Position numbers and translations under genes: made by a program
Notes under the pieces: generated by a model
Seen by the model: the letters and a program-made list of their open reading frames with translations, nothing else
What the model was told of the DNA's origin: nothing
The model's database searches: none
NCBI RefSeq assembly: GCF_030444335.1
Contig: NZ_CP128595.1
Location: 2,370,501-2,434,500, forward strand
Origin: Polaribacter huanghezhanensis
GTDB lineage: Bacteria > Bacteroidota > Bacteroidia > Flavobacteriales > Flavobacteriaceae
Direction of reading: 5' to 3'
DNA length: 64,000 nucleotides
Shown: piece by piece, positions 25,767 through 40,268 of the stretch
How the letters are laid out: each line of letters opens with the position of its first letter
Position numbering within the stretch: the stretch's first letter is position 1

Positions 25767-27755
25767 ATGGATTTTCAATTACATTCTAAATTTAAACCTA
25801 CCGGAGATCAACCAGAAGCCATCAAACAATTGACCGAAGGTCTTGTTGAAGGAGAAAAATACCAAACTTTATTAGGAGTTACCGGTTCTGGAAAAACGTT
25901 TACGGTTGCAAATGTTATTGAAAAGGTAAATCGACCAACCTTGGTGTTGGCACATAACAAAACGCTAGCAGCACAATTGTATTCTGAATTCAAACAGTTT
26001 TTTCCAGAAAATGCTGTGGAATATTTTGTTTCGTACTACGATTATTATCAACCAGAAGCATACATTCCTGTTACAGGAACCTATATCGAAAAAGATTTAT
26101 CTATCAACGATGACATAGAACGACTTAGAATTAGTACGTCTTCTTCCCTACTTTCAGGACGAAGAGATGTGTTGGTAGTTGCTTCGGTTTCTTGTTTATA
26201 CGGAATTGGAAATCCAGTGGAATTTAAAAAGAACGTGATTCCGATTCAAGTTGGACAACAAATCTCTAGAACAAAATTCTTGCATCAATTGGTAACAAGT
26301 TTGTATTCTAGAACCGAATTTGACATCAAAAGCGGAACGTTTAAAGTAAAAGGAGATGTCATTACCATTTATCCATCGTATGGAGATAATGGGTATCGTG
26401 TTCATTTTTTTGGTGATGAAATTGAAGAAATAGAATCCTTTGAAATTGAAAGTAATAAAGTCTTAGAAAAGTTTCAACAACTTACTATTTATCCTGCAAA
26501 TCTATTTGTAACCTCGCCAGACATCTTGCAAAACGCCATCCATATGATTCAAGAAGATATGGTAAAGCAAGTTGATTATTTTAAAGAAATTGGCAAACAT
26601 TTAGAGGCAAAACGCTTAAAAGAACGCACAGAATTCGATTTAGAAATGATTCGAGAATTGGGATATTGTTCTGGAATCGAAAATTATTCTCGTTATTTAG
26701 ACGGACGAGAAGCAGGAACAAGACCTTTCTGTTTGTTAGATTATTTTCCGGATGATTATTTAATGATTATTGACGAAAGTCACGTTACCATTCCGCAAAC
26801 ACACGCCATGTACGGCGGAGATAGAAGTAGAAAAGAAAATTTGGTAGAACACGGTTTTCGCTTGCCAGCCGCAATGGACAATCGTCCGTTGAAATTTGAA
26901 GAATTAGAAGCCATTCAAAATCAAGTAATTTATGTAAGTGCAACACCAGCAGATTACGAATTACAAAAAACAGAAGGAATTTTTGTTGAGCAAATTATTC
27001 GTCCAACAGGATTGTTAGATCCTGTCATTGAAGTACGCCCGAGTTTAAATCAGATTGATGATTTGATCGAAGAAATTCAAATTAGAGTTGAAAAAGACGA
27101 ACGAACTTTGGTAACAACTTTGACCAAAAGAATGGCAGAAGAATTGGCAAAATACTTAACTAGAATTCAAGTTCGTTGTCGTTATATTCATTCTGATGTG
27201 GACACACTAGAACGTGTAGAAATTATGCAAGATTTACGTAAAGGTTTGTTTGATGTATTGATTGGCGTCAACCTTTTAAGAGAAGGTTTGGATTTACCAG
27301 AAGTTTCTTTAGTTGCAATTTTAGATGCAGATAAAGAAGGTTTTTTACGTTCTCACAGATCGTTGACACAAACTATTGGTAGAGCTGCAAGAAATGTAAA
27401 CGGATTGGCAATTATGTACGCCGATAAAATGACAAACAGCATGCAAAAAACCATAGACGAAACCAACAGACGACGAGAAAAACAAATTGAATACAACACA
27501 ACAAATAATATTACGCCAACACAAATTACCAAAGCAATAGACAATTCGTTGACAAAAAGTGCGGTTTCATCTTTTCATTATGACAATGCAATTAACAAAG
27601 CTGCAGAAGCAGATTTAGAATACTTGCCAAAGCCAGAAATTGAAAAACGCATCAGAGAAACTCGTAAAAACATGGAATTGGCAGCAAAAGCGTTAGACTT
27701 CTTAACAGCAGCTCAATTTAGAGACGAAATTGAAGTCTTGAGAAAGCATTTGTAA
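25767..27755 (+). CDS. uvrB: Excinuclease ABC subunit B
   Basis: The 662-residue DNA-damage recognition helicase of nucleotide excision repair is complete. Walker A GVTGSGKTF is near 39-47, the beta-hairpin YYDYYQPEAYIP near 93-104, the DEAD-like box IIDESHVT near 335, helicase motif VI QTIGRAARN near 540, and the C-terminal UVR domain (EKRIRETRKNMELAAKALDF). It is the last core gene before the cassette array begins. Confidence 0.97.
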   Translation: MDFQLHSKFKPTGDQPEAIKQLTEGLVEGEKYQTLLGVTGSGKTFTVANVIEKVNRPTLVLAHNKTLAAQLYSEFKQFFPENAVEYFVSYYDYYQPEAYIPVTGTYIEKDLSINDDIERLRISTSSSLLSGRRDVLVVASVSCLYGIGNPVEFKKNVIPIQVGQQISRTKFLHQLVTSLYSRTEFDIKSGTFKVKGDVITIYPSYGDNGYRVHFFGDEIEEIESFEIESNKVLEKFQQLTIYPANLFVTSPDILQNAIHMIQEDMVKQVDYFKEIGKHLEAKRLKERTEFDLEMIRELGYCSGIENYSRYLDGREAGTRPFCLLDYFPDDYLMIIDESHVTIPQTHAMYGGDRSRKENLVEHGFRLPAAMDNRPLKFEELEAIQNQVIYVSATPADYELQKTEGIFVEQIIRPTGLLDPVIEVRPSLNQIDDLIEEIQIRVEKDERTLVTTLTKRMAEELAKYLTRIQVRCRYIHSDVDTLERVEIMQDLRKGLFDVLIGVNLLREGLDLPEVSLVAILDADKEGFLRSHRSLTQTIGRAARNVNGLAIMYADKMTNSMQKTIDETNRRREKQIEYNTTNNITPTQITKAIDNSLTKSAVSSFHYDNAINKAAEADLEYLPKPEIEKRIRETRKNMELAAKALDFLTAAQFRDEIEVLRKHL

Positions 27756-27826
27756 CAGATACTATTTACGTCTTTTTAAAAGTTTTTAGTATCTTTAACA
27801 TCACTTTAATAACATTCACAAAAAGT

Positions 27827-27890
27827 AACGTTATCCGGAAAATGGACCGGAATAACATTATAAAATATAATTATATAACCAGTTAGCTAC
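27827..27890 (+). repeat. Cassette-array boundary site S0 (partial attC-like)
   Basis: The right side reads TTATATAACCAGTT, identical over 14 nt to site S7, and ends at GTTAGCTAC (27882-27890), the start of cassette 1. Upstream lies an imperfect hairpin GTTATCCGG / CCGGAATAAC (27830-27856). No matching AAC half precedes it because uvrB is core chromosome. It may be a boundary site analogous to attI or a half-degraded cassette site. Confidence 0.5.
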
Positions 27891-27910
27891 AACCTTAGAA
27901 TCGAACAAAA

Positions 27911-28843
27911 TTGGAAACTGATTACAAAAATTTTTACTATTCTTATTTAAAAGAATATCACGAAGTACGAGCAATTTATTTGAATAATTTATTGCAAAAT
28001 ACGAATGAATTAAATTCAGTAATAGAAGAAAAAGAACTTGAATCTGAAGGAATAAAAATACCATTAACTAATAATACAAAATTTATTATTCAAGCAGATT
28101 TGAGACAAAACTATTTTCATTCAATAGAAAGTTTCTTTGAATTTTTATTTGCGTTTTTACCTAAAAATGGAAAAGTTCCTGACAACAAGAATATTTTAAG
28201 AGCTTTAGTTAAATCTAAATGGAGTCAGAATTATAAAAAAATTGAATATATAGCGAATGGAAGTCTAAAATTAAATTTTCTTGATGAAGAAATTGATTTT
28301 CTAAATTATAAAGTAACTGTTGGTCATTATTTGTTTTTTATTGGAACTTTCTCAAAAGAAAAGTTTAATGATGAATATCAAAATTCAGTTAAAAAAAGTA
28401 TTACATCAATAAAAAAAATCATAAAAACAATAGCAAATGATTTTTGCAAAAGAGATGAATACAACGCCTACAAGCATACTATGAGAGTATTCCCTTCATT
28501 TAACTCTATTCATTTCCTAAATGCTGAAACTTTAAAAGAGGAATTAAAATTTGACTTATCAAACTCTGCTTCATATCAAATATACAATGACAAAGAAAAA
28601 GAAACTATTGTCAAAACGAAACTATTTGACCCTGAAAGAGATTTTAAAATGACAAGAATATGTAGTCATTTAATTTATAATATGGTTGAATTAAGAAGTA
28701 TAGTTTTTGGAAATAGAAAAAATAAAAATGAGAAAATAGCTTTAAACCTATTTAATGAAGATAATTTCGAAGAATCAAATAAACATAATGTGAAAATACA
28801 AGATTTGAGTTTCAGTTCAAAATTAATAAACGGCAGTAGCTAA
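27911..28843 (+). CDS. Cassette 1: unknown protein
   Basis: I do not recognise a family with confidence. The 310-residue protein has no signal peptide or membrane segment and is rich in Lys, Asn, Phe and Ile. It has the stretch CKRDEYNAYKHTMRVFPSF near residues 180-198, a pattern seen in helical, HEPN-like hypothetical proteins, but that is suggestive only. The start is TTG, 29 nt into the cassette. The stop codon TAA (28841-28843) lies inside the cassette's terminal inverted repeat. Confidence 0.7.
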   Translation: METDYKNFYYSYLKEYHEVRAIYLNNLLQNTNELNSVIEEKELESEGIKIPLTNNTKFIIQADLRQNYFHSIESFFEFLFAFLPKNGKVPDNKNILRALVKSKWSQNYKKIEYIANGSLKLNFLDEEIDFLNYKVTVGHYLFFIGTFSKEKFNDEYQNSVKKSITSIKKIIKTIANDFCKRDEYNAYKHTMRVFPSFNSIHFLNAETLKEELKFDLSNSASYQIYNDKEKETIVKTKLFDPERDFKMTRICSHLIYNMVELRSIVFGNRKNKNEKIALNLFNEDNFEESNKHNVKIQDLSFSSKLINGSS

Positions 28844-28978
28844 CACCGTGTAAAAAAAATTGCTGGTAAAAGCTCACTTACGAAAATCCTCTCGGATTTT
28901 CTTGGTTTGTGTTTTATTTATTAAATTCACTGCTTCAACCACGCAACTTTACTTACACAAACACGTTGTGTGCAATTA
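28836..28978 (+). repeat. attC-like cassette site S1
   Basis: The left core GTAGCTAAC (28836-28844) belongs to cassette 1 and is the exact complement of that cassette's start (27882-27890). Inner stem GTGTAA (28848-28853) pairs with TTACAC (28953-28958). A central hairpin GAAAATCC-tctc-GGATTTTC is present. The right core GTTGTGTGCAATTA (28965-28978) opens cassette 2. The central part is shared with S9. Confidence 0.75.
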
Positions 28979-29104
28979 CGACAAACCGACAATCTCGATA
29001 AAATATTCAAAGAAAGTAACATTTATAAAATTATCACGACAGATAGTAAACTGAAAACTATAGTAATAAATAGAATTTAGACTTAACATTAAAACAAATT
29101 CATT

Positions 29105-30205
29105 ATGAGTAATAGACGAAATTGGTTAAAACAAGTAGGTTTAGGAGTTGTGGGATTAGGTCTTGGACAAATTGAAACTTTTGCAAATCCAATACCTAAC
29201 TACTTTGTTTCTAACCCGAATGATACTCGAATTTTATTAAGGTCTAACGAAAATCCATACGGTCCATCACCATTAGCACGAACTGCTATGACAGAAAGTA
29301 TAAATATTAGCAACAGATATGGTTGGACACAAACATCTGAATTGATTACTCTAATAGCTAAAAAAAATAATGTTGCAGAAAAAAATATTCTTTTAGGAGC
29401 GGGTTCAACTGAAATTTTAGATTTAGCACTCCAATTTACTGCTTTAAAAAAAGGTACTTTTATTTTAGCCGAAACAACATATGATTATTGGACTTCTCCA
29501 GCAAAAACTTTAGGAATTAAAAAAATTACTATTCCACTTACAGCAGATAAAAGACTTAATTTGACCGCAATGCTAAAAGCCATTGATTCAGATACTAAAA
29601 TGATTTATATATGTAATCCAAATAATCCGACAGGAACAATTTGTGAAAGAGATGAACTTGTATCATTTATACAAGAAGCATCAAAGAAAGTGATTGTATT
29701 AGTAGATGAAGCATACATTGACTTTACAAATCAACAATCGTTAAGTAATCTTGTAATTGAAAATAAAAATTTAATTGTTGCTAAAACTTTTTCAAAAATG
29801 TATGGATTAGCAGGTGGACGCATAGGTTATGCAGTAGCAAATGAATCCACTATTTATGAGCTTAGCCAATTACAATCTTGGCCAAACGGAAGTGTTAGTG
29901 TCGTGTCAACAGCAGGTGCTTTAGCTTCATTAAAAGATGAAAATTTTAAAAAGGAAGTTTATTCATTAAATGAAAAAGTTAAAAAATATACAATTGAACA
30001 ACTTGAACACTTAAATATTACTTGTATTCCTTCGCATTCAAACTTTATTTATTTTTCCCTTTCTAATTATAAAAAAGATTTCTTTGAACAATTGGAAAAG
30101 AATAATATTGTTGGAACTAAAATTTATGAAGAACAAGGAAAATGGTCACGAATTACAGTCGGAACAATGCAAGAAATGGAAATGTTTATTAATGCCCTAA
30201 GATAA
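29105..30205 (+). CDS. Cassette 2: Tat-exported histidinol-phosphate aminotransferase-like enzyme
   Basis: This 366-residue fold-type I PLP enzyme is HisC-like: NENPYGPSPLA, NPNNPTGTIC, VDEAYIDF and the PLP-lysine in KTFSKMYGLAGGRIGYA near residue 230, then the C-terminal Arg region. Unusually it opens with a twin-arginine leader (NRRNWLKQVGLGVVGLGLG), so it is predicted to act outside the cytoplasm. It is not in a his operon. A role on an exported or scavenged amino compound is more likely than histidine synthesis; substrate is unknown. Confidence 0.85.
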   Translation: MSNRRNWLKQVGLGVVGLGLGQIETFANPIPNYFVSNPNDTRILLRSNENPYGPSPLARTAMTESINISNRYGWTQTSELITLIAKKNNVAEKNILLGAGSTEILDLALQFTALKKGTFILAETTYDYWTSPAKTLGIKKITIPLTADKRLNLTAMLKAIDSDTKMIYICNPNNPTGTICERDELVSFIQEASKKVIVLVDEAYIDFTNQQSLSNLVIENKNLIVAKTFSKMYGLAGGRIGYAVANESTIYELSQLQSWPNGSVSVVSTAGALASLKDENFKKEVYSLNEKVKKYTIEQLEHLNITCIPSHSNFIYFSLSNYKKDFFEQLEKNNIVGTKIYEEQGKWSRITVGTMQEMEMFINALR

Positions 30206-30207
30206 AA

Positions 30208-30346
30208 TAACTGCACACAACACCTCATAAAATTTATGCTTAAATTTGAACTAATAGAAACAACAAACATTCAACAAACAATTTGCTACGTCCGAAAAAT
30301 CTCCGATTTCTCAGTCGCACAAATCTTATAAAATCCCGTTGGCAAC
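30208..30346 (+). repeat. attC-like cassette site S2
   Basis: The left core TAACTGCACACAAC (30208-30221) complements the start of cassette 2 at 13 of 14 positions. The interior (CTCATAAAATTTATGC, then TTTGCTACGTCCGAAAAATC) is shared with S7, making a second site family. The right end CCCGTTGGCAAC places the next junction at 30338. Confidence 0.72.
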
Positions 30347-30358
30347 AAGCTGAAAAAA

Positions 30359-31912
30359 ATGAAATCCGAACTAACAATTTACTTTTTTCTACTCATAACA
30401 TTACTGTTTTCCTGCAAAGAAGAACACAATAATGTAAAATCCAAAGTAGAAAAACCAAATAAAATTGTTTTGATTTCAATAAATGCACCAGCAAAATACA
30501 CTCATTACATAAAGCAAGACAGCATAGGAAAAAAACTCAAGGATAGTTTAGGACCTAAAACATTTTGGAACAATAATGGTTTCACATATTTGAATTATAT
30601 GAACAATGAACAAACTTGGTTGCCCGAACCGAATGTTCGTGACACTATTGCAATTGAATGTTATTCAGAATATTTAGAATTATCTACAAATAACTTTTTT
30701 ACCTCAATAAAAGAGACATTTTTAGTAAAAAACGGAGACACAGTTGTTTTTAACTATAATCATAATATTCCAAATGCAGAAATAACAAACAGAGCTGTAA
30801 ATGACATAGAATTAAACTATAATAATTACAGACTTAAAAAATTATTCGATAACAAGTACACAAGTCATTACCTAATTTTTGGAAATCTTTTTCTAAACGA
30901 TGACTTTAAAAATTATGAACAAAATTCAATTGATTACTATAATAAGGCAAAAAATGATTTTGTTAGAGAAACACAATTATTAGATTCTTTATTAAAATCA
31001 AAAAGCATTACGCAGACAAATTACAATTATCGAAAAGATGCTTTGAATATGTTAATGGAAAAGCACAAAAAACTCAAGAATATTAAAAAGTGGTTGGAAC
31101 AAAACAAATCTTTAAGAGATAAAGAAACCATTGAGCAACTTTTTGGTTTCGATTTAGCCAAAACAGACTCTTTAATGAAATTTTCATTCTTTAGAGATTA
31201 TTTAAATAATATTTCGGAATACAAGTTAGAATTTATAATAGAAAATAATGGAAGTTCAGGTGGAGCTTATATAGACTCAAGAATTCGTTTTGACTCAATT
31301 TTAAAAGATAATCGATTTAATCAAGTTGCTAAAAACTATCTACTTTTCAATGCTTATGACGGAATTGGTAAAAATTTCAGAATCAGAGACAAAGAAAAAT
31401 ATTTTAAAAAACTACAGGAGAACACTACAAACAGAGAGCAACTCGACAAATTGCAGAAAAACTACAAATTGGATTTCAGCAAGTCTGACAAGCTGATTTT
31501 AACCGACTTAAAAAATGATACAATTACTTTTTCTAATGTTTTAAAAAACAACAAAGGAAAATGGCTCTATGTTGATTTTTGGGCAAGTTGGTGTAAGCCT
31601 TGTCGAGAGACAATGCCAGAATCTAACAAGCTTAAAAAGGAATTAAAAAATGAAAATATTGAGTTTATATATTTGGCTCTAAATGATAGAAAAGAAAATT
31701 GGGAAAAAGCAATAAAAATCGATAGTCTTACAAAAAGTCAAAACTACTTTATAGAAAACGGAAATGTTTCTAAAGTTGTTGAAGATCTAGGAATTAAAAC
31801 AATACCTCATTATTTAATTTATAATCCAAATGGAGAATTAATAAATGGATTTGCAAATCGACCAGGAAAAGGAGCAAAAGAACAATTAAGAAAATTATTG
31901 ACGGAAAAATAA
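30359..31912 (+). CDS. Cassette 3: TlpA-like thioredoxin-domain lipoprotein
   Basis: The 517-residue lipoprotein (ITLLFSC, Cys19) has a long N-terminal region without a recognised domain but with coiled-coil-like Lys/Glu stretches. A C-terminal thioredoxin domain follows with VDFWASWCKPCRETMPES near 404-421 (active site WCKPC) and cis-Pro TIPHYLIYNPNGE. It is predicted to be a periplasm-facing thiol reductase or a disulfide exchange protein. It is the only gene of its cassette, with a 20-nt leader. Confidence 0.85.
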   Translation: MKSELTIYFFLLITLLFSCKEEHNNVKSKVEKPNKIVLISINAPAKYTHYIKQDSIGKKLKDSLGPKTFWNNNGFTYLNYMNNEQTWLPEPNVRDTIAIECYSEYLELSTNNFFTSIKETFLVKNGDTVVFNYNHNIPNAEITNRAVNDIELNYNNYRLKKLFDNKYTSHYLIFGNLFLNDDFKNYEQNSIDYYNKAKNDFVRETQLLDSLLKSKSITQTNYNYRKDALNMLMEKHKKLKNIKKWLEQNKSLRDKETIEQLFGFDLAKTDSLMKFSFFRDYLNNISEYKLEFIIENNGSSGGAYIDSRIRFDSILKDNRFNQVAKNYLLFNAYDGIGKNFRIRDKEKYFKKLQENTTNREQLDKLQKNYKLDFSKSDKLILTDLKNDTITFSNVLKNNKGKWLYVDFWASWCKPCRETMPESNKLKKELKNENIEFIYLALNDRKENWEKAIKIDSLTKSQNYFIENGNVSKVVEDLGIKTIPHYLIYNPNGELINGFANRPGKGAKEQLRKLLTEK

Positions 31913-31917
31913 AGCCA

Positions 31918-32059
31918 GTTGCCAACAACGTGTATGCATCATTGCTGGTGGATTTTTCCGGTGGAAAAATCCAGTGATTATTCAATATTGGTTTTTAATT
32001 TACTATTTTTAGTGCTAGCCAGCCGCAACAACCCATACACGAACACGTTGTGCGTAATT
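31918..32059 (+). repeat. attC-like cassette site S3
   Basis: The left core GTTGCCAAC (31918-31926) is the exact complement of cassette 3's start. Inner stem GTGTATG (31930-31936) pairs with CATACAC (32034-32040). A hairpin GGATTTTTCC-ggt-GGAAAAATCC spans 31950-31972. The right core GTTGTGCGTAATT starts at 32047. The right 37 nt are identical to S5. Confidence 0.78.
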
Positions 32060-32064
32060 AAAAA

Positions 32065-33210
32065 ATGAAAATGAGAAAAATAAACTTTTTGCTAATTCTA
32101 TTATGTTTGTCATTATGGAATTGTACAAAAAAAACTGAAAAAGCTGTAATTTCTTTTAAAATCAATAATATGAATTCAAAAGAAGTTAAAGTAAGACTTA
32201 CTTCTTTTGGAGAAAAATTTTCAGATAAATATAAAACTGTAAATTTAGAAAACGGAGAATTTATTCTTGATACTTTAATAAATGAACCGAAAGAAGTTAT
32301 AATTCAACCAAACGAAATGTTGAAAAAACTCTCAAATGGTGAATTATTTCCTATTCCTTCCAAACTAGTTAAATTCTTTATTTATCCAAAAGATAGAGTG
32401 AATGTTAGTGGATCAATGAGCGAATATAAAGTTGATTACAAAGTTGATGGCAATTTATTAAACAATCAATATTCAGATTATAGAAAGAGTATTTTAAATA
32501 ATTATGAACTTGGAAGTAAACTATTTTATGATGTAGAAAATCTTTATTCTAAAGGAGCTAAAGATTCTATAATAAGAATAACTGAAAATAATGAGATAGA
32601 AGTTTCTAAAAAGAATAGAAAAGCACCAATTAATTATATTAATAAAAACCAGAACATTGAACTTTCATCATTTTTATTAGCAAATGAACAGAAAGAAGTA
32701 ATTATAGAAAATTATGATAATCTTTCCGAAAAAGTTAAAAAATCTGATTTTGGAATAATCCTTAAAAAAAGAATTGACAATTGGAAAAATCTTTCAATTA
32801 ATTCAACTGCTCCAAATTTTGAATATCAAACTTATAAAAGCGGAAAAATTAAATTATCAGAAAATAATGGAAAATTTATAGTTTTAGATTTTTGGGGAAG
32901 TTGGTGTGGACCTTGTATTATGGAAATGCCGAAAATGAAAGAATTCTATAAAAATAATAGTAAAAAAATTGAAATTATAGGAATTGCAGCAAGAGACAAA
33001 GAGGCAAACTGGATTAAGGCAATAAAAGAAAATAATTTAACTTGGAAACATATTTTTAACAATAAAAAGAAAGACGATTTAGTCAAAAAATATGGAGTTA
33101 CTGGATTTCCAACAAAAATTATTATAAATCCAAATGGAAAAATTGAAGGAATCTACTTGGGAATAAAAGAAGATTTCTATTTGAAAATGGAGGAATTATT
33201 GAAAAATTAA
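32065..33210 (+). CDS. Cassette 4: TlpA-family disulfide reductase lipoprotein
   Basis: The 381-residue lipoprotein (lipid Cys20 in CLSLWNC) has a DUF4369-like N-terminal region and a C-terminal TlpA/ResA thioredoxin domain: IVLDFWGSWCGPCIMEMPK with WCGPC near 281-285 and cis-Pro TGFPTKIIINPNGK. It is similar in plan to cassette 3 but not closely alike in sequence. The leader from the junction is only 18 nt, so it probably relies on an upstream promoter. Confidence 0.88.
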   Translation: MKMRKINFLLILLCLSLWNCTKKTEKAVISFKINNMNSKEVKVRLTSFGEKFSDKYKTVNLENGEFILDTLINEPKEVIIQPNEMLKKLSNGELFPIPSKLVKFFIYPKDRVNVSGSMSEYKVDYKVDGNLLNNQYSDYRKSILNNYELGSKLFYDVENLYSKGAKDSIIRITENNEIEVSKKNRKAPINYINKNQNIELSSFLLANEQKEVIIENYDNLSEKVKKSDFGIILKKRIDNWKNLSINSTAPNFEYQTYKSGKIKLSENNGKFIVLDFWGSWCGPCIMEMPKMKEFYKNNSKKIEIIGIAARDKEANWIKAIKENNLTWKHIFNNKKKDDLVKKYGVTGFPTKIIINPNGKIEGIYLGIKEDFYLKMEELLKN

Positions 33211-33212
33211 AA

Positions 33213-33359
33213 AACTACTGCCAACACCGTGTATAATTAATTGCTGCGGAATTTCCCTGTCAGAAATTCACGCGAATTAATTATCTTTCCGCTACGGCGG
33301 AAAGTGGATCGTGCTTTTAACCGCAAAAAATCATACACAACCACGTTGTAAATAATTTT
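33213..33359 (+). repeat. attC-like cassette site S4
   Basis: The left end AACTACTGCCAAC (33213-33225) is only weakly complementary to cassette 4's start (9/13). Inner stem GTGTAT (33229-33234) pairs with ATACAC (33333-33338). Two internal hairpins, GAATTTC/GAAATTC and CTTTCCGC-tac-GGCGGAAAG, are present. From GTGTAT to the junction it is about 95% identical to S8, 5 kb away. The right core starts at 33345. Confidence 0.8.
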
Positions 33360-33375
33360 AAAATAACCCCAATAA

Positions 33376-33996
33376 ATGAAAAAGAGCATTCTATTTTTAA
33401 CATGTCTAATTTTAACAAACTTATCATTTGGACAAAAAAACAATAGCAATCTGAAAATGATTTCCGATTACTCATCAAACAATCCTGAAATTAGAGATAT
33501 TTTACAGTTTGAAGGAATTGAATATTTGAAATTAAAATTTATTGGAAAAGAATTAAAAAACAAAAGCTATCATCTAACAGTAAAAGAAATTTGGAATGGT
33601 AAAATAGTTCGAGACACTACAGTTTTCAACAGTAAAACTATTGGAATTAAGCAATTTGAAAAAGTTAATGACACAATGTTAACTTTAAAAGTAATTTCCA
33701 AATTGACCCATAAGAACAAATTAAAAATGACTTTCCGATTTCCACGTTTTGGAATAACAAAAGAATATGACGCAATTGATACTAATGACTATAGTTTAAG
33801 AAATATTGCAGAAGAAAGCAAAATGGAAATTAGTTATGATAAAAAATTCTACTTGCTCGCTTATATTTTACCCTATGAAAAAAAAGATGGTTCAAAATCT
33901 TGGTGTGATGTTGGAACGAGTGGTAAAGACATTGAAAATTGGGGAAAGAAATTCGGAATAAAACATTATTTGTTATTTGAAATGAAATTTGAATAA
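33376..33996 (+). CDS. Cassette 5: secreted unknown protein
   Basis: The 206-residue protein has signal peptide MKKSILFLTCLILTNLSFGQ and no further domain that I recognise. The remainder is predicted to be beta-rich (KSYHLTVKEIWNGKIVRDT, KLKMTFRFPRFGITKEYDA), ending in LLFEMKFE. The ATG is 30 nt after the cassette junction and the stop is at the 5' edge of the following site, so the cassette carries hardly any non-coding sequence apart from the site. Confidence 0.75.
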   Translation: MKKSILFLTCLILTNLSFGQKNNSNLKMISDYSSNNPEIRDILQFEGIEYLKLKFIGKELKNKSYHLTVKEIWNGKIVRDTTVFNSKTIGIKQFEKVNDTMLTLKVISKLTHKNKLKMTFRFPRFGITKEYDAIDTNDYSLRNIAEESKMEISYDKKFYLLAYILPYEKKDGSKSWCDVGTSGKDIENWGKKFGIKHYLLFEMKFE

Positions 33997-34123
33997 AAAC
34001 AATTTACAACACCGTGTATATTTCCAATGGAAAAATCCGGTGATCATTCAATGTTAGTTTTATTTCATTAAATTTATCGCTAGCCAGCCGCAACAACCCA
34101 TACACGAACACGTTGGCATATTT
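33996..34123 (+). repeat. attC-like cassette site S5
   Basis: The left core AAAACAATTTACAAC (33996-34010) complements cassette 5's start at 13 of 15 positions. Inner stem GTGTAT (34014-34019) pairs with ATACAC (34100-34105). The right end GCTAGCCAGCCGCAACAACC...CACG matches S3. The next junction is at 34112. Confidence 0.78.
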
Positions 34124-34154
34124 CAGGACAAGACACATTTAAAAAAAAGGAAAA

Positions 34155-34919
34155 ATGATTAAAAGATTATTAAAACAAAATTTGTCAAATTCAAGTAAGC
34201 GCAAATTAAGGAATCATGTAAATGATTTTAAAGCAGTTTTTTTTTGTGGCAATTTGAATAAGCTAGGTAAAATATACGGCACAGATAAAATCGGAGGACA
34301 CTTCTATACTCCTCATTACATGACACATTTAAAAAAATTCAGATTAAAAAAAATAAACTTACTTGAAATAGGCGTTGGTGGTTATAAAAATCCATTGATC
34401 GGAGGTCAATCCTTAAGAATGTGGAAGAAATATTTTCCATTTGGTAGAATATTTAGTTTAGATATATATGATAAATCTTCCCTTCAAGAAAATAGAATAA
34501 AAATATTTAAAGGAAGTCAAGTAGATAAAGACTTTCTTGAAGGAGTTTCTGATTATATAGGCGAAATAAATATTATTATAGATGATGGTAGTCACATTAA
34601 TGAGCACGTTATTGAATCTTTTAATATCTTATTTCCAAAATTAAAAGATGGTGGAGTATATATTATTGAAGATACACAAACTTCCTATTGGGAAGATTTT
34701 GGTGGTGATAGTAAGGATTTAAAAAATCCTAAAACAATGATGAACTATTTTAAAAATTTGACTGATTCTTTGAATAACCAAGAGTTCATATTTCCTAATT
34801 ATAAACAAACCTACTTTGACAAGAAAATAATTTCAATTCATTTCTACCACAATTTAATTTTTATTTACAAGGGAAATAATAATGAAAAATCAAATATGGT
34901 AGTTAATAACCAAAGATAA
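34155..34919 (+). CDS. Cassette 6: SAM-dependent O-methyltransferase (MycE/TylE-like)
   Basis: The 254-residue protein resembles sugar O-methyltransferases of the MycE/TylE type: KIYGTDKIGGHFYTPHY near 37-53, SAM site LLEIGVGG near 70-77, IIDDGSHINEH near 140-150 and VYIIEDTQTSYW near 173-184. The Asp/His pair binds Mg2+ and the sugar acceptor in the family. It probably methylates a surface or secondary-metabolite sugar. It is a single-gene cassette. Confidence 0.82.
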   Translation: MIKRLLKQNLSNSSKRKLRNHVNDFKAVFFCGNLNKLGKIYGTDKIGGHFYTPHYMTHLKKFRLKKINLLEIGVGGYKNPLIGGQSLRMWKKYFPFGRIFSLDIYDKSSLQENRIKIFKGSQVDKDFLEGVSDYIGEINIIIDDGSHINEHVIESFNILFPKLKDGGVYIIEDTQTSYWEDFGGDSKDLKNPKTMMNYFKNLTDSLNNQEFIFPNYKQTYFDKKIISIHFYHNLIFIYKGNNNEKSNMVVNNQR

Positions 34920-34923
34920 ACTA

Positions 34924-35055
34924 CACACAACATTTTGTGTAAATAATGGCAGATAAAGTGGTAAATATCAAGGTTTTTATTCCGCTCAAACTGAGTAGCG
35001 GTTTGACAGGAAAGCACCACGAAATCTGCCACTACTCATACAATTTACAGTTGTG
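34924..35055 (+). repeat. attC-like cassette site S6 (long-stem type)
   Basis: Four nested stems are seen: CACAAC/GTTGTG (34926-34931, 35050-35055), GTAAAT/ATTTAC (34939-34944, 35043-35048), GGCAGAT/ATCTGCC (34948-34954, 35024-35030) and GTGGT/ACCAC (34958-34962, 35016-35020). The sequence differs from the other families, but the architecture is the same. The cassette 6 end does not complement its own start here. Confidence 0.72.
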
Positions 35056-35086
35056 AAAAATACTGAACTGTAACAATAAAAGACCT

Positions 35087-36094
35087 ATGAATATTAAGAA
35101 AATAATAACAGATAGACATTATCAAACTTGGCCTAGTTGGCATATTATTTATGAATGGGAAAATGAGATCTCAAAATCGTTAAATCTACCTCTCAAGAAT
35201 AGCCCTGGAATAAATAAATATATTTTCTTTCTCGTTAAAAATTTGAAACGAGTTAACAAGAAATTATTTAAAGGTCGATTTGATTCATTTTTGAACGAAA
35301 TATTAGTTCTCAATGCTAAAAATTCGTTTTATTTTGAAATGCATCCAAAGGGTCATAAACAATTCTCGAACTTTAGAAAAACAATCCCAATAATTGTTGA
35401 TTTTTTTAGTAAGTCAAAGATTGAGTTTTATAAAGAAATGTATGCAGACTGTCCTTATCTATTAATCACAAGTCTCGAGGTATTGAATTTCCTTGAAGAA
35501 AATCATATTAAAACTAAATTGATTCATTTTCCAATAAGTTTACCTTCAATGTATAAATTATTACCAAATCAATTTATTGAAAAAAAGTATGATATTGTAT
35601 TAGCAGGAAGGACAAATGTAGTTTTATGGGATTACCTTAAAAGGTATGAAAAATCACATCCAGAAGTTGAATATCTCTATCAAATTGAACAAAATGGAGA
35701 GTTATATTATAAGAGTAACTTAAATGGTATTATTGGAAATTTTCATACTCGTCAAGAGTATATTAATCTAATAAAATTAGCAAGAATCTCTTTCTATTCA
35801 ACACCGGGAATAGATGGAGGAGAAAAAAGAACAAATGGATTTAATCCTGTTACTCCAAGATTTTTAGAGTTATTATCTGCGGGTTGTCATATTATAGGAA
35901 GATATCCTAAAAATAGCGAAACTGATTATTATAAATTAGAAACAATTTGTCCTTCAACAAATTCTTATTCTGATTTTAAAAATCAATTAAATATTGTATT
36001 AAATTTAGACCCACCTATAAAAAGAAATTCTGAATATCTTGAGAATCATTACACATCAACTCGAATTGAAATTTTAAAAAAAATAAATGAATAA
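35087..36094 (+). CDS. Cassette 7a: glycosyltransferase-like protein (GT-B)
   Basis: The 335-residue protein looks like a group 1-like (CgeB-type) glycosyltransferase. The C-terminal Rossmann half contains YDIVLAGRTN, SFYSTPGIDGGE, then GFNPVTPRFLELLSAGCHIIG, the typical donor-binding region near 258-280. The N-terminal half is divergent. It overlaps the next gene by eight bases, so this cassette carries a translationally coupled pair, probably for glycan decoration. Confidence 0.75.
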   Translation: MNIKKIITDRHYQTWPSWHIIYEWENEISKSLNLPLKNSPGINKYIFFLVKNLKRVNKKLFKGRFDSFLNEILVLNAKNSFYFEMHPKGHKQFSNFRKTIPIIVDFFSKSKIEFYKEMYADCPYLLITSLEVLNFLEENHIKTKLIHFPISLPSMYKLLPNQFIEKKYDIVLAGRTNVVLWDYLKRYEKSHPEVEYLYQIEQNGELYYKSNLNGIIGNFHTRQEYINLIKLARISFYSTPGIDGGEKRTNGFNPVTPRFLELLSAGCHIIGRYPKNSETDYYKLETICPSTNSYSDFKNQLNIVLNLDPPIKRNSEYLENHYTSTRIEILKKINE

Positions 36095-37073
36095 ATCTAT
36101 TGTTATCACAAGTATTTTTGAACCTACTGAGGCCGTTAAAGCTTTTTCACAATTAAAAGGTTATGACTTGATTATTATTGGTGATAAAAAATCACCAATA
36201 AAATGGGATTGTAAAAACACAACTTATCTATCAATTGATGAGCAATTAAAATTAAACTTTCAATTGGTGGAATTATTGCCATTTAATCATTATTCAAGAA
36301 AAATGTTGGGTTACCTTATAGCTATAAAGAATAAATCAGATTTTATTATTGACACTGATGATGATAATATTCCTAAAGGAAATTGGAATTTCCCTTCATT
36401 CAACAAAGAATTTGATTGTATAACTGAAGACAATGGATTCGTTAATATTTATCAATTATTTACTGAACAAAAAATTTGGCCAAGAGGTTTACCATTAAAC
36501 TTAATAAATACCAACTATAATTTCAATGAATTAATTTCACAGAAAGAATGTAAAGTTGGAGTTTGGCAAGGTTTAGCAGATGAAGACCCTGACGTAGATG
36601 CCATTTATCGTCTAACTCTTGATGTACCATGCTATTTTAATGATAGAAGACCTATTGTACTTTCTAAAGGAACAATGTGTCCTTTTAATACTCAAAATAC
36701 AATTATTATAAAAGAATTATTCCCTTTATTATATTTGCCTACATACGTCACGTTTAGATTTACAGACATTTTACGCGGACTTATTGCCCAACCTATAATG
36801 TGGTTATATGGCTATCAACTTGGCTTTACAAATGCAACTGTAATACAAAAAAGAAATCCACATGACTATAAGAAAGACTTCATTTCTGAAATCCCAATGT
36901 ATGAGAATTGTGATGAGATAATAGAAATTGTGAGTAATGTTATATCTGCAGAAAATAATATTTCCGATAATCTTCTATTGGCTTACAAAGCATTATTGAA
37001 TAAATCAATCGTAACTAAAAATGAATTAATCACACTAGAGGCTTGGCTTGGCGACCTTAAAAACTTGTGCTAA
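36087..37073 (+). CDS. Cassette 7b: STELLO/DUF288-like glycosyltransferase
   Basis: The 328-residue protein shows the STELLO-type GT-A pattern: VITSIFEPTEAVK at the N-terminus, NHYSRKMLGYLIAI near 72-85, the acidic metal motif IDTDDDN near 88-94, then WQGLADEDPDVDAIYRL and CPFNTQNTI. STELLO-like bacterial proteins are poorly characterised and often sit in glycan islands. The stop TAA (37071-37073) lies within the AAC core of site S7. Confidence 0.78.
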   Translation: MNKSIVITSIFEPTEAVKAFSQLKGYDLIIIGDKKSPIKWDCKNTTYLSIDEQLKLNFQLVELLPFNHYSRKMLGYLIAIKNKSDFIIDTDDDNIPKGNWNFPSFNKEFDCITEDNGFVNIYQLFTEQKIWPRGLPLNLINTNYNFNELISQKECKVGVWQGLADEDPDVDAIYRLTLDVPCYFNDRRPIVLSKGTMCPFNTQNTIIIKELFPLLYLPTYVTFRFTDILRGLIAQPIMWLYGYQLGFTNATVIQKRNPHDYKKDFISEIPMYENCDEIIEIVSNVISAENNISDNLLLAYKALLNKSIVTKNELITLEAWLGDLKNLC

Positions 37074-37204
37074 CACCTCATAAAATTTATGCCCACATTT
37101 AAACTAAATAATGAACCGACAAACATTCAACTAGCGATTTGCTACGTCCGAAAAATCTCCGATTTTCCAGTCGCACAAATCTTATATAACCAGTTGTTTG
37201 CAAC
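37065..37204 (+). repeat. attC-like cassette site S7
   Basis: The site starts TTGTGCTAACACCTCATAAA and shares its interior with S2 (CTCATAAAATTTATGC; GCTACGTCCGAAAAATCTCC; CAGTCGCACAAATCTTATA). The right core GTTGTTTGCAAC begins at 37193. The left end does not complement cassette 7's start. Confidence 0.68.
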
Positions 37205-37234
37205 CTAAAAAACCAGCTGACTAATAAATAACTA

Positions 37235-37979
37235 ATGAAACTAGTAACAAGAGATGATATTGAAAATTGGGCAAGTACAGCTTTATCAAAAACTGACTTA
37301 CCATATCTAATTTCAAAACTGGTAAGAGCAACAACACCGCTTAGCACACAAGTAAATTTCCCTTCCGGAAGCACAGCATTCACAGGTGGTTGGGATGGTA
37401 TATGAAGAAAAGACACCTTATGTACCTAAAGGAGTTTCTTTGTATGAATTTGGAACCGAGAGTAACCCCAAGGGAAAAGCTGAAAAGGATTATAATAAAA
37501 GAAAAAAACATTCCCTTGGCTACGACCCTAAAGAAAGTGTATTCATTTTCATTACTCCAAGGTTTTGGAAATTTAAGGAAAAGTGGGTAAAAGAAAAGCA
37601 ATCTGAAGGGTTTTGGAAAGATGTTAAGACCTATGATTCATCTGATATAGAACAATGGCTTGATATTGCAGTATATGTCTCTGGCTGGTTTGCCAATTAC
37701 CTTAGAAAAGCTCCTCTAAATGGAGTTGATATAGCCGAGCTTTTTTGGAGATATTGGTCGGAATATGCAGGAATAAATATTCTACCTGAAACCATAGTTT
37801 CAGGTCGTGAAAACGAACAAGAAGAAATATTTAAATTCATTAATGATAAGCCAAATATATCCTCTCTGAAAGCCGCTACAAAGAATGAGGCTATTGCCTT
37901 TATTATAGCATCGGCTAAACTTTTCCCTGAAAAAGAATCAGAAATATTTTTCTCAAAAGCTTTAGAAGACCTGAACTAA
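37235..37979 (+). pseudogene. Cassette 8: frameshifted, truncated N-terminal part of a large nuclease-like protein
   Basis: An ATG at 37235 opens 51 codons (MKLVTRDDIENWASTALSKT...) that stop at a TGA near 37390. The same protein continues one base out of frame from about 37386 (VYEEKTPYVPKGVSLYEFGT...) to 37979. Joined, it resembles the first 245 or so residues of a much longer family with a Mrr/PD-(D/E)XK-like N-terminal region (WDGxVYEEKT, EFGTESNPKGKA). Both the frameshift and the missing remainder mark it as a decayed gene. A defence role is conjecture. Confidence 0.72.
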
Positions 37980-38040
37980 AAAACAACTCTTTTATTCTTT
38001 CTGATTTATAATCAAATTTAGTAAAAGACAAACTTAAGAT

Positions 38041-38169
38041 GTGTATAATTAATTGCTGCGGAATTTCCCTTCGGAAATTCACGCGAATTAATTATCTTTC
38101 CGCTACGGCGGAAAGTGGATCGCACTTTTAACCGCAAAAAATCATACACAAACACGTTCTACGCAATTT
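38041..38169 (+). repeat. attC-like cassette site S8 with eroded left core
   Basis: From GTGTAT (38041) to the junction at 38156 it is about 95% identical to S4, with stem partner ATACAC at 38144-38149. A perfect hairpin GAATTTCC-cttc-GGAAATTC is included. The usual ...AACACC before GTGTAT is replaced by unrelated bases, consistent with the decayed gene in cassette 8. The right core is GTTCTACGCAATTT (38156-38169). Confidence 0.75.
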
Positions 38170-38179
38170 GAGAAAAATT

Positions 38180-38209
38180 TTGCATTTATACCTATTTTTG
38201 GTATATTTG
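38180..38209 (+). promoter_or_regulatory. Promoter with overlapping operator-like palindrome for parDE
   Basis: TTG (38180-38182), a 19-nt spacer and TATATTTG (38202-38209) give a textbook Bacteroidota promoter. A perfect inverted repeat TATACC-N7-GGTATA (38187-38192, 38200-38205) overlaps the -7 box, as expected for an autorepressor site bound by the antitoxin. Confidence 0.7.
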
Positions 38210-38227
38210 AATTAAATTAGTATTAAA

Positions 38228-38479
38228 ATGAACAAAAACACATCAATATCACTCGGAAACTATTTTGACCAATTCGTTCAAAGTAGCGTTAATGAAGGAC
38301 GATTTAAAAATGTTAGCGAAGTTGTTCGTGCTGGATTAAGGCTTTTGGAAGAAGAAGAAAGTAAAGTTATAGCTTTGAAAAATGCAATTCAAGAAGGAAT
38401 TGACAGCGGAATTGCTTACGATTTCGACCCAAAAAAACATCTTGAATCACTAAAGGCGAAAAAACACTCAAATGCCTAA
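38228..38479 (+). CDS. Cassette 9a: ParD-family antitoxin
   Basis: The 83-residue protein has a ribbon-helix-helix N-terminus (NTSISLGNYFDQFVQSSV, then GRFKNVSEVVRAGLRLLEEEE) and an extended C-terminal toxin-binding tail (IDSGIAYDFDPKKHLES). It should bind the palindrome in its own promoter and neutralise the toxin encoded by the overlapping downstream gene. The gene pair has its own promoter, unlike most cassettes here. Confidence 0.92.
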   Translation: MNKNTSISLGNYFDQFVQSSVNEGRFKNVSEVVRAGLRLLEEEESKVIALKNAIQEGIDSGIAYDFDPKKHLESLKAKKHSNA

Positions 38480-38771
38480 TTATCAATTAACGAATAAGGC
38501 TGTTGCTGATTTATCAAAAATTTGGGAATACACATTTGAAGTTTGGTCAGAAAAACAAGCTGATAAATATTACGATGGAATAATTTCATATTGCGAGGAA
38601 ATAGCTGAAAATCCAGAAATAAGAAAAAATTATGAAGGTATTTCAAAGCAACTTTTGGGAATAAAAACAAATCGACATATAATATTCTACAGAACTTTAA
38701 ACAAAGATTATGTTGAAATAACAAGAATATTACACGAGAGAATGGATTTAAAAAAAAGAATAACTGAATAA
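38472..38771 (+). CDS. Cassette 9b: ParE/RelE-superfamily toxin
   Basis: The 99-residue toxin starts MPNYQLTNKAVADLSKIWEYT and contains YYDGIISYCEEIAENP and the core strands GIKTNRHIIFYRTL and VEITRILHERMD, typical of ParE gyrase-poisoning toxins. It overlaps the antitoxin gene by eight bases (ATGCCTAA). Toxin-antitoxin pairs are known stabilisers of long integron arrays. Confidence 0.92.
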   Translation: MPNYQLTNKAVADLSKIWEYTFEVWSEKQADKYYDGIISYCEEIAENPEIRKNYEGISKQLLGIKTNRHIIFYRTLNKDYVEITRILHERMDLKKRITE

Positions 38772-38936
38772 AAACTGCGTAGAACACCGTGTATAATTAA
38801 TGGCTAGTTCTCGCTTACTTACGAAAATCCTCGCGGATTTTCTACCTGCCTACCGGCAGGCAGGTTCGGTTTTTATTTGCTAAATTACGTCCTTAATCAC
38901 ACAACTACTCATAGCCGAGATAGTTGTGCTTCATTA
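38772..38936 (+). repeat. attC-like cassette site S9
   Basis: The left core AAACTGCGTAGAAC (38772-38785) complements the start of cassette 9 at 13 of 14 positions. GTGTAT follows at 38789. Hairpins GAAAATCC-tcgc-GGATTTTC and CCTGCC-tacc-GGCAGG are inside. The right junction is GTTGTGCTTCATTA at 38923; the right inner arm differs (GGCTA/TAGCC pairing instead of ATACAC). Confidence 0.72.
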
Positions 38937-38953
38937 TCTGAAACCGATAAACA

Positions 38954-39979
38954 ATGATACAATTCTTTCGAAAAACACAATACGGCCTTATGAAAAAAAA
39001 TAAAACTGAAAAATACTTTAAATCTCCCTTAGTAAAGAATTCCTTTATTTTTATTGGCATTTTAACTCTCCTTATTGCTAGTTGTGCTCCTTTAGAGAAA
39101 CCAACAAATCCATATTTGAAGGCTAAAAACGGCTATGTACAAGTAGAAGGTGGAAAAATTTGGTACGCTATAACTGGAGAAGGCGACAACACTCCTTTGC
39201 TGTATCTTCATGGAGGACCAGGAGGTACAAGTAATTTTAACTTGTCTGAAATTGCTGATGAACGACCAGTAATCGTATTTGATCAATTAGGAAATGGAAG
39301 GTCTGACCATCATAAAGATACTACGTTACTTAAAGTGCATAAGCTTGTTGAACAAGTACGTGCTATTAAAACTACATTGAAGTTAAATGAATTTTATTTA
39401 TCTGGAGGATCTTGGGGTACAGCTTTGGCTCTTGAATACTATAATAAATATCCTGAAGGTGTGAAAGGACTTATATTTAACAGCCCTTATTTTAGCACCA
39501 AGATTTGGACTGATGATGCTGACATACTTATAGCTGCATTACCTGATTCTATTCAATCTGCCATCAGAATTGCAGAAGCTGACAGTATTTTTGAAACGGA
39601 TTCGTATGCCAATGCCAACAAGGTTTTTGCAAAAAAACACGGAAGGAGAACTGCGTATAAAAAGCATCCATCTGATACTCTAAAATATACACGAGATTCA
39701 TTTATATACAACTTTATGTGGGGTCCAAGTGAGTTTACTTCAACTGGAACACTAAGAAATTACGACATTCACCAAACTCTTAAAGACATCACAGTTCCTG
39801 TATTATTTACTACTGGAGAATTTGATGAAGCGCGTCCAGAGACGGTTAAGAAATTTAGTGAAATGGTACCGAACTCTACAATGGTAATAATTGAAGGAGC
39901 TGGACATTCTACTTCTAATGATAATCGACCAGCGCTGATAGCTGCACTAAAACAATTTTTGAAGAATCAAAAAAAATAG
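38954..39979 (+). CDS. Cassette 10a: proline iminopeptidase-like alpha/beta hydrolase lipoprotein
   Basis: This peptidase family S33 hydrolase has up to 341 residues, with LHGGPGG (oxyanion), FDQLGNGRSD, GGSWGTALALEY (nucleophile Ser), TTGEFDEARPE (Asp) and GAGHS (His). A lipoprotein signal (FIGILTLLIASC) implies export. The alternative ATG at 38990 places the signal closer to the N-terminus and may be the true start. Natural substrates may be N-terminal prolyl peptides or small amides. Confidence 0.85.
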   Translation: MIQFFRKTQYGLMKKNKTEKYFKSPLVKNSFIFIGILTLLIASCAPLEKPTNPYLKAKNGYVQVEGGKIWYAITGEGDNTPLLYLHGGPGGTSNFNLSEIADERPVIVFDQLGNGRSDHHKDTTLLKVHKLVEQVRAIKTTLKLNEFYLSGGSWGTALALEYYNKYPEGVKGLIFNSPYFSTKIWTDDADILIAALPDSIQSAIRIAEADSIFETDSYANANKVFAKKHGRRTAYKKHPSDTLKYTRDSFIYNFMWGPSEFTSTGTLRNYDIHQTLKDITVPVLFTTGEFDEARPETVKKFSEMVPNSTMVIIEGAGHSTSNDNRPALIAALKQFLKNQKK

Positions 39980-39994
39980 AAACTAAATAAAAAA

Positions 39995-40159: not shown

Positions 40160-40213
40160 GAGTTCAACAATATAAATCAAAAACATGAATTGAGTTCATC
40201 CGTTTTTAAGCAA

Positions 40214-40243
40214 AAAAACGCCTCACAAATGTGAGGCGTTTTT
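40214..40243. terminator. Bidirectional terminator before sucC
   Basis: AAAAACGCCTCACA pairs with TGTGAGGCGTTTTT between the array end and the convergent sucC gene. Confidence 0.88.
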
Positions 40244-40268
40244 AACACTTAAATATATTTACAAGCAA

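What the first reader, a model, noticed from the sequence alone, without database searches (positions are those of the whole stretch)
27882..38923. Integron-like gene cassette array in a flavobacterium with non-canonical attC-like sites and no integrase in the window
Seen: ten unrelated gene units on one strand, each closed by a 100-150 nt palindromic site whose outer edges are ...AAC and G/TT.... Nested inner stems are GTGTAT/ATACAC, GTGTAA/TTACAC, GTAAAT/ATTTAC, and there are internal hairpins. Known: integron cassettes have this plan (one gene plus one attC, same orientation, folded two-box sites, recombination at G/TT). Difference: the cores here are not RYYYAAC/GTTRRRY; only AAC and GTT are kept, so a canonical attC model would probably miss them. 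Inference: a related but distinct recombination system, or a cluster of attC-like sites mobilised by a recombinase encoded elsewhere. I know of no name for this site family.
Basis: partly seen in the sequence, partly recalled or inferred. Interest (0 to 1): 0.95.

Follow-up and report, generated by a model that had tools for sequence, protein, structure and literature searches.

The report
Integrons without the classic integrase
Flavobacteria carry rows of genes, most with a start tag that mirrors its own end tag; they are likely swapped as folded single DNA strands by an enzyme that lacks a part held essential for this in known integrons, which would make the origin of integrons testable.

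Summary
The window holds nine cassettes (27883-38923) behind an attI-like head after uvrB. Cassette starts mirror their OWN far ends: 66 of 76 cassettes from window and relatives agree in at least 5 of 6 positions (shuffles: maximum 15), 18 of 20 in an added set, in the window itself 5 of 8 testable. The relative with the most similar uvrB has an attI-like site at the same place but other cassettes. A tyrosine recombinase gene elsewhere in the genome is followed by attI and cassettes. All 32 family members aligned lack the 42-residue insert of all 18 IntI aligned, where I2, held essential for cassette capture, lies. Sites lack conserved extrahelical bases; instead top-strand A.C mismatches become bottom-strand G.T wobbles (146 against 4), and the bottom strand folds better (55 of 59). 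It works like an integron but fails the IntI test: a new variant, found in many genomes of the order. Catalysis, single-strand use and action in trans are inferred.

The parts
27819..27885 (+). S0: attI-like array head (hairpin, then TATATAACCAG/TT); junction between 27882 and 27883
   Evidence: The same element lies behind the integrase in L023 and L031 and behind other genes in L089, L090, L093; the same ATATAACCAG/TT follows the integrase in L011
27883..28965 (+). Cassette C1 (ORF 27911-28843, no Pfam family)
   Evidence: Start TTAGCTAC mirrors own end GTAGCTAAC, 6 of 6
28833..28977 (+). attC-like site S1
   Evidence: R1 126.1 bits; used to build R1
28966..30338 (+). Cassette C2 (aminotransferase-like ORF 29105-30205)
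   Evidence: Start TTGTGTGC mirrors own end GCACACAAC, 6 of 6; Pfam
30210..30350 (+). attC-like site S2
   Evidence: R1 49.8 bits, not used in the model
30339..32047 (+). Cassette C3 (thioredoxin-like ORF 30359-31912)
   Evidence: Own ends mirror, 6 of 6; a relative at 89% over 1.6 kb in two other genomes, L094 and L095
31915..32059 (+). attC-like site S3
   Evidence: R1 99.5 bits; used to build R1
32048..33345 (+). Cassette C4 (thioredoxin-like ORF 32065-33210)
   Evidence: Own ends do not mirror, 3 of 6
33214..33357 (+). attC-like site S4
   Evidence: R1 112.5 bits; used to build R1
33346..34112 (+). Cassette C5 (ORF 33376-33996, no Pfam family)
   Evidence: Start TTGTAAAT mirrors own end ATTTACAAC, 6 of 6
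33999..34122 (+). attC-like site S5
   Evidence: R1 59 bits, not used in the model
34113..35050 (+). Cassette C6 (methyltransferase-like ORF 34155-34919, weak Pfam match)
   Evidence: Own ends do not mirror, 1 of 6; Pfam
34920..35062 (+). attC-like site S6
   Evidence: R1 77.5 bits; used to build R1
35051..37193 (+). Cassette C7, two genes (35087-36094; STELLO-like 36087-37073)
   Evidence: Own ends do not mirror, 2 of 6; Pfam
37063..37205 (+). attC-like site S7, right end TATATAACCAG/TT as in S0
   Evidence: R1 38.4 bits, not used in the model; motif
37194..38156 (+). Cassette C8 (gene looks interrupted; longest ORF 37386-37979)
   Evidence: S8 lacks AAC, so its ends were not testable
38032..38168 (+). 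attC-like site S8 (degenerate R'')
   Evidence: R1 75.4 bits, not used in the model
38157..38923 (+). Cassette C9 (ParD-like antitoxin 38228-38479 and the ORF behind it, 38472-38771)
   Evidence: Start TTCTACGC mirrors own end GCGTAGAAC, 6 of 6; the same start behind other sites or elements in L065, L067, L070, L071
38774..38935 (+). attC-like site S9
   Evidence: R1 95.6 bits; used to build R1
38924..39979 (+). Tail after S9: ORF 38954-39979 with no site found behind it; a relative of this gene lies 0.9 kb behind an S0 element in L089

Best explanation
The window holds nine gene cassettes in one orientation behind an attI-like head, each ending in a hairpin-forming site with its junction at G/TT, and they are likely inserted and excised by a tyrosine recombinase encoded elsewhere in the same genome, whose family lacks the insert that sets classical IntI apart. 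Shown from sequence: most cassettes have a start complementary to their own end (12 nt apart from position 10), as expected if the two meet in an excised circle; the G/TT junction is kept in homologous cassettes, at the orthologous locus of a relative and at solitary sites of this genome; the recombinase gene is followed by attI and cassettes on its own strand. Inferred: the circle's site folds on the bottom strand, strand choice being favoured by fixed G.T wobbles (R arm position 10, L arm positions 7 and 12) in place of the extrahelical bases of classical attC; the recombinase would cut the folded bottom strand between G and TT and join it to attI, with the window array served in trans.
For: Own-end mirroring 66 of 76 cassettes, same-site pairing 1 of 80; added set 18 of 20; cassettes behind attI 9 of 9, behind S0 3 of 3. 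Junctions: of 13 loci with a C9 relative displayed, 4 share the first 11 or more nt of the cassette right after G/TT behind a different site or element, 3 have another start that matches their own end in 5 or 6 of 6, 6 show neither. Orthologous locus in G316 with attI and other cassettes. Solitary element: 3 filled copies with both flanks kept, 3 uninterrupted, 1 unclear. attI behind the integrase in 12 of 13 near loci with DNA downstream. Genomes with 5 or more sites: 27 of 28 have the integrase. 35 sites on one strand over about 37 kb at the G316 integrase. R, K, H, R, H, Y invariant in 25 of 25 (their catalytic role recalled). Bottom strand folds better in 55 of 59 sites that could be built from the 76 cassettes; top-strand A.C 146 against G.T 4 in 65 of 84 sites, 53 against 0 in the added set.
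Against: No experiment, and no excised circle was looked for. In the window only 5 of 8 testable cassettes mirror their own ends and S8 is degenerate, so part of the array is rearranged or decayed. 38 of 85 genomes with the integrase show no site, and 23 of 70 with a site show no integrase at the limit used. Of 37 sites within 20 kb of an integrase hit, 10 are not downstream on its strand; 9 of these lie by shorter recombinases matched without the N-terminal part, 1 by a full-length one (given a hand-copied part of the rows printed). An attI-like motif with up to 2 mismatches is found behind 18 of 41 integrases, and before 1 of 41. Part of the bottom-strand lean is composition: shuffles 74% against 93%. 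19 of 84 sites do not fit the symmetric arm. L027 has the integrase and no attI. XerA-type proteins match the recombinase better than IntI and were not in the tree.
Confidence: 0.9

Rival explanations
1. A decayed canonical integron cassette cluster (CALIN) written by a classical IntI that has been lost.
For: Cassette plan, G/TT and bottom-strand folding are those of integrons; classical IntI over the cut-off occurs in 105 of 395 genomes of the phylum, and two papers list Bacteroidota among phyla with integrons (PMC9668308, PMC8618304, passages).
Against: Of the 106 genomes with a match, 105 are labelled same phylum and one same class, none same order, family or genus (how many of the 395 are of the order the output does not say); the own genome has none over the cut-off; the linked recombinase lacks the insert in 32 of 32; the site model finds 0 sites in 20 IntI loci of 71 kb, which reach only about 1.5 kb to each side.
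Confidence: 0.05
2. Cassettes are moved by housekeeping Xer recombinases of the host, the linked gene being incidental.
For: Xer-like genes are present in the genome, and Xer can be hijacked by mobile elements (PMC7790495, passages).
Against: attI lies right behind the linked gene in 12 of 13 near loci; 27 of 28 site-rich genomes carry the family, while the Xer subgroup is in almost all classes (PMC8138268, passages).
Confidence: 0.04
3. Dispersed palindromic repeats (MITE or REP) that happen to sit between genes.
For: The sites are palindromic, repeated and spread; a solitary palindromic element of 7 copies exists too.
Against: A repeat would not make the two far ends of a gene unit complementary (66 of 76), nor keep G/TT junctions.
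Confidence: 0.01
4. Transcription terminators or structured RNAs at gene ends.
For: They follow genes and fold.
Against: No Rfam family reaches its gathering score in 26000-42000; RNA of the gene strand would carry the A.C mismatches, the fold favours the other strand.
Confidence: 0.01

Closest known systems
Integrons with IntI (class 1, Vibrio superintegron, archaeal integrons)
   Same: Cassettes of mostly one gene plus one folded site, G/TT junction, R and L boxes with a central spacer, attI as head, up to 35 sites in one region here; tyrosine recombinase
   Different: Integrase without the IntI insert and with an N-terminal extension; sites without conserved extrahelical bases but with fixed wobble positions; GTTRRRY in 1 of 76; integrase gene runs into attI and cassettes on one strand
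CALIN (attC clusters lacking an integrase)
   Same: The window array has no integrase beside it
   Different: It has an attI-like head, and the same genome holds an integrase with its own attI and sites
attG secondary sites of integrons (PMC12901181, passages; the primary paper only as a reference there)
   Same: Cassettes inserted at G/TT of solitary genomic sites, here a palindrome of about 65 nt
   Different: Here the target is one repeated element, seen both uninterrupted and filled in one genome
XerA and archaeal Xer recombinases (NCBIfam NF040815; PDB 4a8e, 5hxy)
   Same: Best sequence and Foldseek matches of the catalytic part; NF040815 just met (220.8 bits, cut-off 220), a model that NCBI describes as 'site-specific tyrosine recombinase/integron integrase'
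   Different: N-terminal extension, attI behind the gene, cassette arrays
Integron-like subgroup of tyrosine recombinases (PMC8138268, passages)
   Same: That paper notes that the insertion is not fully conserved in its subgroup; these proteins may belong there (not tested)
   Different: The passages read describe no cassette arrays or sites for members without the insertion

Membership tests
Integron | Integrase IntI with the IntI-specific extra domain (I2) near patch III | tested here: not met
   K motif to H.LRH: 65-66 residues in 32 of 32 family members (10 of 42 rows dropped for internal stops), 107 in 18 of 18 IntI (2 of 20 loci dropped), 68-73 in 4 own Xer-type proteins; TIGR02249 207.6 bits against cut-off 265. 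That I2 lies in this stretch is recalled
Integron | attI next to the integrase gene | tested here: met
   12 of 13 near loci with DNA downstream; 18 of 41 by a strict motif that includes distant members
Integron | Cassettes with attC-type sites, junction at G/TT, ends complementary in the circle | tested here: met
   66 of 76, 18 of 20 added, junctions
Integron | Core consensus RYYYAAC / GTTRRRY | tested here: not met
   GTTRRRY 1 of 76, RYYYAAC 6 of 76; the consensus is taken from the finding and recalled, and is loose in classical sites
Integron | Extrahelical bases on the folded bottom strand | tested here: not met
   L arms 16 and 16 nt in 15 of 18; 65 of 84 sites fit a symmetric 16-bp arm, 19 do not
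Integron | Bottom strand favoured in folding | tested here: met
   55 of 59, beyond composition
Integron | Recombination of the folded bottom strand by the integrase, replicative resolution | not testable with these tools
   Needs an experiment
Integron | Expression of cassettes from a Pc promoter | not tested
   No promoter test was made
NF040815 (XerA type / integron integrase, NCBIfam) | Score over the curated cut-off | tested here: met
   220.8 against 220 for the window genome's protein; all 25 aligned members match the model at E 1e-20 or better, their scores against the cut-off not shown
MITE or REP repeat | Solitary insertions unrelated to gene units | tested here: not met
   Sites close gene units whose ends mirror

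The most novel reading that the evidence does not exclude
Flavobacteria carry a second kind of integron: an I2-less, Xer-like integrase recombines folded bottom-strand cassette sites, and a code of fixed G.T wobbles, not extrahelical bases, tells it which strand to use. It would be either the surviving stage before I2 arose, answering which came first, attC or I2, or an independent solution.
Probability: 0.6. Interest if true: 0.95.

Novelty: new variant of a known kind. Interest (0 to 1): 0.9.

Why it matters
I2 is described as necessary for cassette capture, and its deletion as a complete loss of function of IntI1 (PMC7790495, passages); Escudero et al. call the order of I2 and attC a chicken-egg paradox (PMC4792948, passages). 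Cassette arrays tied to an I2-less integrase make that question testable. For the Bacteroidetes/Chlorobi group IntegronFinder 2.0 reported earlier In0 elements, Chlorobi and Ignavibacteriae, and now Salinibacter ruber (PMC9024848, passages; the word Flavobacter does not occur there), whereas here 70 of 296 genomes of the window's order show such sites: a large gene-exchange reservoir may have been overlooked.

Tried and rejected
HARP-like N-terminal domain: Pfam hit below the gathering score, in 1 of 25 members only, so dropped as a name; the extension itself is real. A short attI pattern in the own genome gave fewer hits than its reversed control (27 and 27 against 57 and 66); of its four exact hits two lie beside sites (503854, 1915275), the other two were not looked at. 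Convergent origin or IntI nested in the family: the tree does not decide (family held together p-AU 0.473), several long rows were left out of that tree, and XerA was in neither tree. Replication-strand bias: sites fall in two blocks of opposite strand in the own genome, but origin and terminus were judged from weak skew in 20 samples, so it is not used. Phage or plasmid carriage: 0 of 58 phage records covers 80% of the integrase; among plasmids the best by coverage and identity is 40.7% identical, from Chryseobacterium. Paper searches for integrons with Bacteroidetes, Flavobacteri, Bacteroidota, Bacteroidia, Polaribacter, Tenacibaculum, HARP and I2: as far as the listed titles, abstract beginnings and passages show, none describes this system; bioRxiv and most subscription journals are not held. 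The first script of own-end matching took the wrong AAC for C3; one search corrects it.
Full report
OBSERVATION. The stretch 27882-38923 lies between uvrB and sucC. Nine attC-like sites are found there on one strand by a covariance model (R1) made from 18 sites, five of them from this window; four of the nine were not used to build it. The pairs covary: 14 cells with changes on both sides, reached by 0 of 500 shuffles, and sliding the partners by one to three columns drops pairing from 95.6% to 19-43%. The genome has 22 such sites at E up to 0.05: nine in the window, two at the integrase locus, eleven elsewhere.

CASSETTE ENDS. In an integron cassette the bases right after the G/TT cut come from the 5' end of the same circular cassette whose 3' end carries R''. 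So a cassette's start should be complementary to its own end. Of 84 sites, one lacked AAC and three lacked GTT where expected; 76 cassettes could be tested. At positions 3-8 after TT, 427 of 456 bases agree and 66 of 76 cassettes agree in at least five of six (63 in all six); 10000 shuffles gave a mean of 5.1 and a maximum of 15. The two boxes that face each other within one integrated site agree that well in 1 of 80. Loci that gave no row to the model: 27 of 30. An added set from G316: 18 of 20, shuffles mean 1.6, maximum 8 (the same genome gave rows to the model through L023, but none of these sites). In the window 5 of 8 testable cassettes mirror (C1, C2, C3, C5, C9); C4, C6 and C7 do not and C8 cannot be tested.

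JUNCTIONS. (a) The ParD-type cassette C9 recurs in the genus. Of 13 loci displayed, four (L065, L067, L070, L071) share the first 11 or more nucleotides of the cassette right after G/TT while a different site or element lies before it; three (L072, L074, L088) have another start box that matches their own end in five or six of six; six (L066, L068, L069, L073, L076, L081) show neither. (b) In G316, the relative with the most similar uvrB end, the flanks are about 90% identical (uvrB side to window 27803, sucC side from 40116); uvrB is again followed by an attI-like site (TATATAACTAG/TT), then by other cassettes and two sites, then sucC; of its two cassettes one mirrors 6 of 6, one 4 of 6. None of the other 28 uvrB loci fetched (of 93 genomes with a match) shows an attI-like site within 200 nt. 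(c) A solitary palindromic element occurs seven times in the window's genome. In three copies a stretch that ends in an attC-like site lies exactly between ...ATTAAAG or ...ATATAAG and TTAGCGAA, its start mirroring its R'' in six of six; in three the element is uninterrupted, one of these in a shorter form; one is a variant that I could not class.

THE RECOMBINASE. The genome's best integron-integrase match is a gene at 738384-739553, matched in two pieces, under the cut-off. About 35 nt behind its stop comes GATATAACCAG/TT, then a cassette of two genes and an attC-like site whose R'' mirrors the cassette start; next is a 5.4-kb cassette with restriction-modification-like genes. With 13 further loci from named genomes, an attI-like site and then different sequence follow the gene in 12 of the 13 loci that have DNA downstream, the window's genome counted; L027 has none, and L025 ends. 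More distant members, at about 40% identity, show motifs like CATATAAAYAAG/TT at the same place (read by eye); a strict motif count gives 18 of 41 downstream against 1 of 41 upstream. The residues R, K, H, R, H and Y are invariant in 25 members. The predicted structure (mean pLDDT 82.7, pTM 0.50) is closest in Foldseek to archaeal Xer and XerA, then to IntI, all with modest TM-scores.

WHAT IS MISSING. The stretch between the lysine motif and H.LRH has 65-66 residues in 32 of 32 family members (42 rows, ten dropped for internal stops), 107 in 18 of 18 classical IntI (20 loci, two dropped) and 68-73 in four Xer-type proteins of the own genome; the alignment with the solved Vibrio IntI breaks at the same place. 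Classical IntI over the cut-off is found in 105 of 395 genomes of the phylum; of the 106 genomes with a match one is labelled same class and 105 same phylum, none same order. R1 finds no site in 20 of these IntI loci (71 kb, E up to 1). The tree joins the family with IntI apart from the own Xer-type proteins, but whether IntI lies inside the family is open, and XerA, which matches the recombinase better by sequence, was not included.

SITE STRUCTURE. All 18 model sites have a central spacer of 3 and 6 nt, and 15 of 18 have arms of 16 and 16 nt; 65 of 84 sites fit a symmetric 16-bp arm, 19 do not. Classical attC carries extrahelical bases that direct strand choice (PMC2727003, passages). Here mismatches are one-sided: 146 A.C on the top strand, hence G.T on the bottom, against 4 of the reverse; position 7 in 55 of 65, position 12 in 57 of 65, R arm position 10 in 64 of 66; added set 53 against 0. 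For the 59 of 76 cassettes whose site could be built, the folded circle site is more stable on the bottom strand in 55 (mean -24.7 against -20.8 kcal/mol). Shuffles lean the same way by composition, but less (1.3 against 3.9 kcal/mol, 74% against 93%).

DISTRIBUTION. In 296 genomes of the order, 85 have the integrase (E up to 1e-40) and 70 have sites; both in 47. With five or more sites (at most ten were scored per genome): 28 genomes, 27 with the integrase. Beside the integrase of G316, 35 sites lie on its strand over about 37 kb. Of 37 sites within 20 kb of an integrase hit, 27 lie downstream on its strand; nine of the ten exceptions sit by shorter recombinases matched without the N-terminal part, one by a full-length member (hand-copied rows). 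DNA of the array has matches at E up to 1e-15 in 136 of 166 genomes of the genus, many of them to the sites alone.

MECHANISM. Shown: units with mirrored own ends, kept G/TT junctions, replaced cassettes at an orthologous site, filled and uninterrupted solitary sites, a recombinase with attI behind it. Inferred: that this recombinase does the reaction, on the folded bottom strand, with wobbles in place of extrahelical bases, and in trans for the window array.

MEMBERSHIP. It works like an integron. As a member of the IntI integrons it fails the I2 feature and the extrahelical-base feature; so I call it a new variant. PMC8138268 states that the insertion is not fully conserved in its integron-like subgroup, so such proteins may have been seen before, and NCBI names some of them 'site-specific tyrosine recombinase/integron integrase'; the paper searches named in Tried and rejected gave no description of their arrays.

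Noticed in passing
G000:C1, element copies at 480375, 1272167, 1346951, 1357191, 1958807, 2008588, 2061194: A solitary palindromic element (about 65 nt, with TTCGCTAAC and GTTAGCGAA boxes) is the insertion point of cassettes in three places and is uninterrupted in three.
   Followed up: partly
G000:C1, 22 sites: Sites lie on + at 114-746 kb and 2399-2409 kb and on - at 1269-2117 kb, two blocks; this may reflect replication direction (weak skew).
   Followed up: partly
L011:11196-16554: A 5.4-kb cassette with type I restriction-modification-like genes and a DUF6602 gene, with mirrored ends: an unusually large cassette.
   Followed up: no
window:37235-37979: The gene of cassette C8 looks interrupted (an ATG frame ends at 37405, another frame runs on to 37979).
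   Followed up: no
L017, L020, L021, L022, L025, L026: Contigs end within 1.6 kb behind the integrase in six of 13 loci, as expected if repeated sites break assemblies; such arrays may be under-represented in draft genomes.
   Followed up: no
L019:12203-13316 and 18243-18739: The same 496-nt unit (start TTAGAGAAAACA, own end matching 4 of 6) recurs three times within one array.
   Followed up: no
G128:C13, G246:C44, G133:C1: Shorter recombinases of the same superfamily lie near some sites without the strand rule; G133 has several with similar scores.
   Followed up: no
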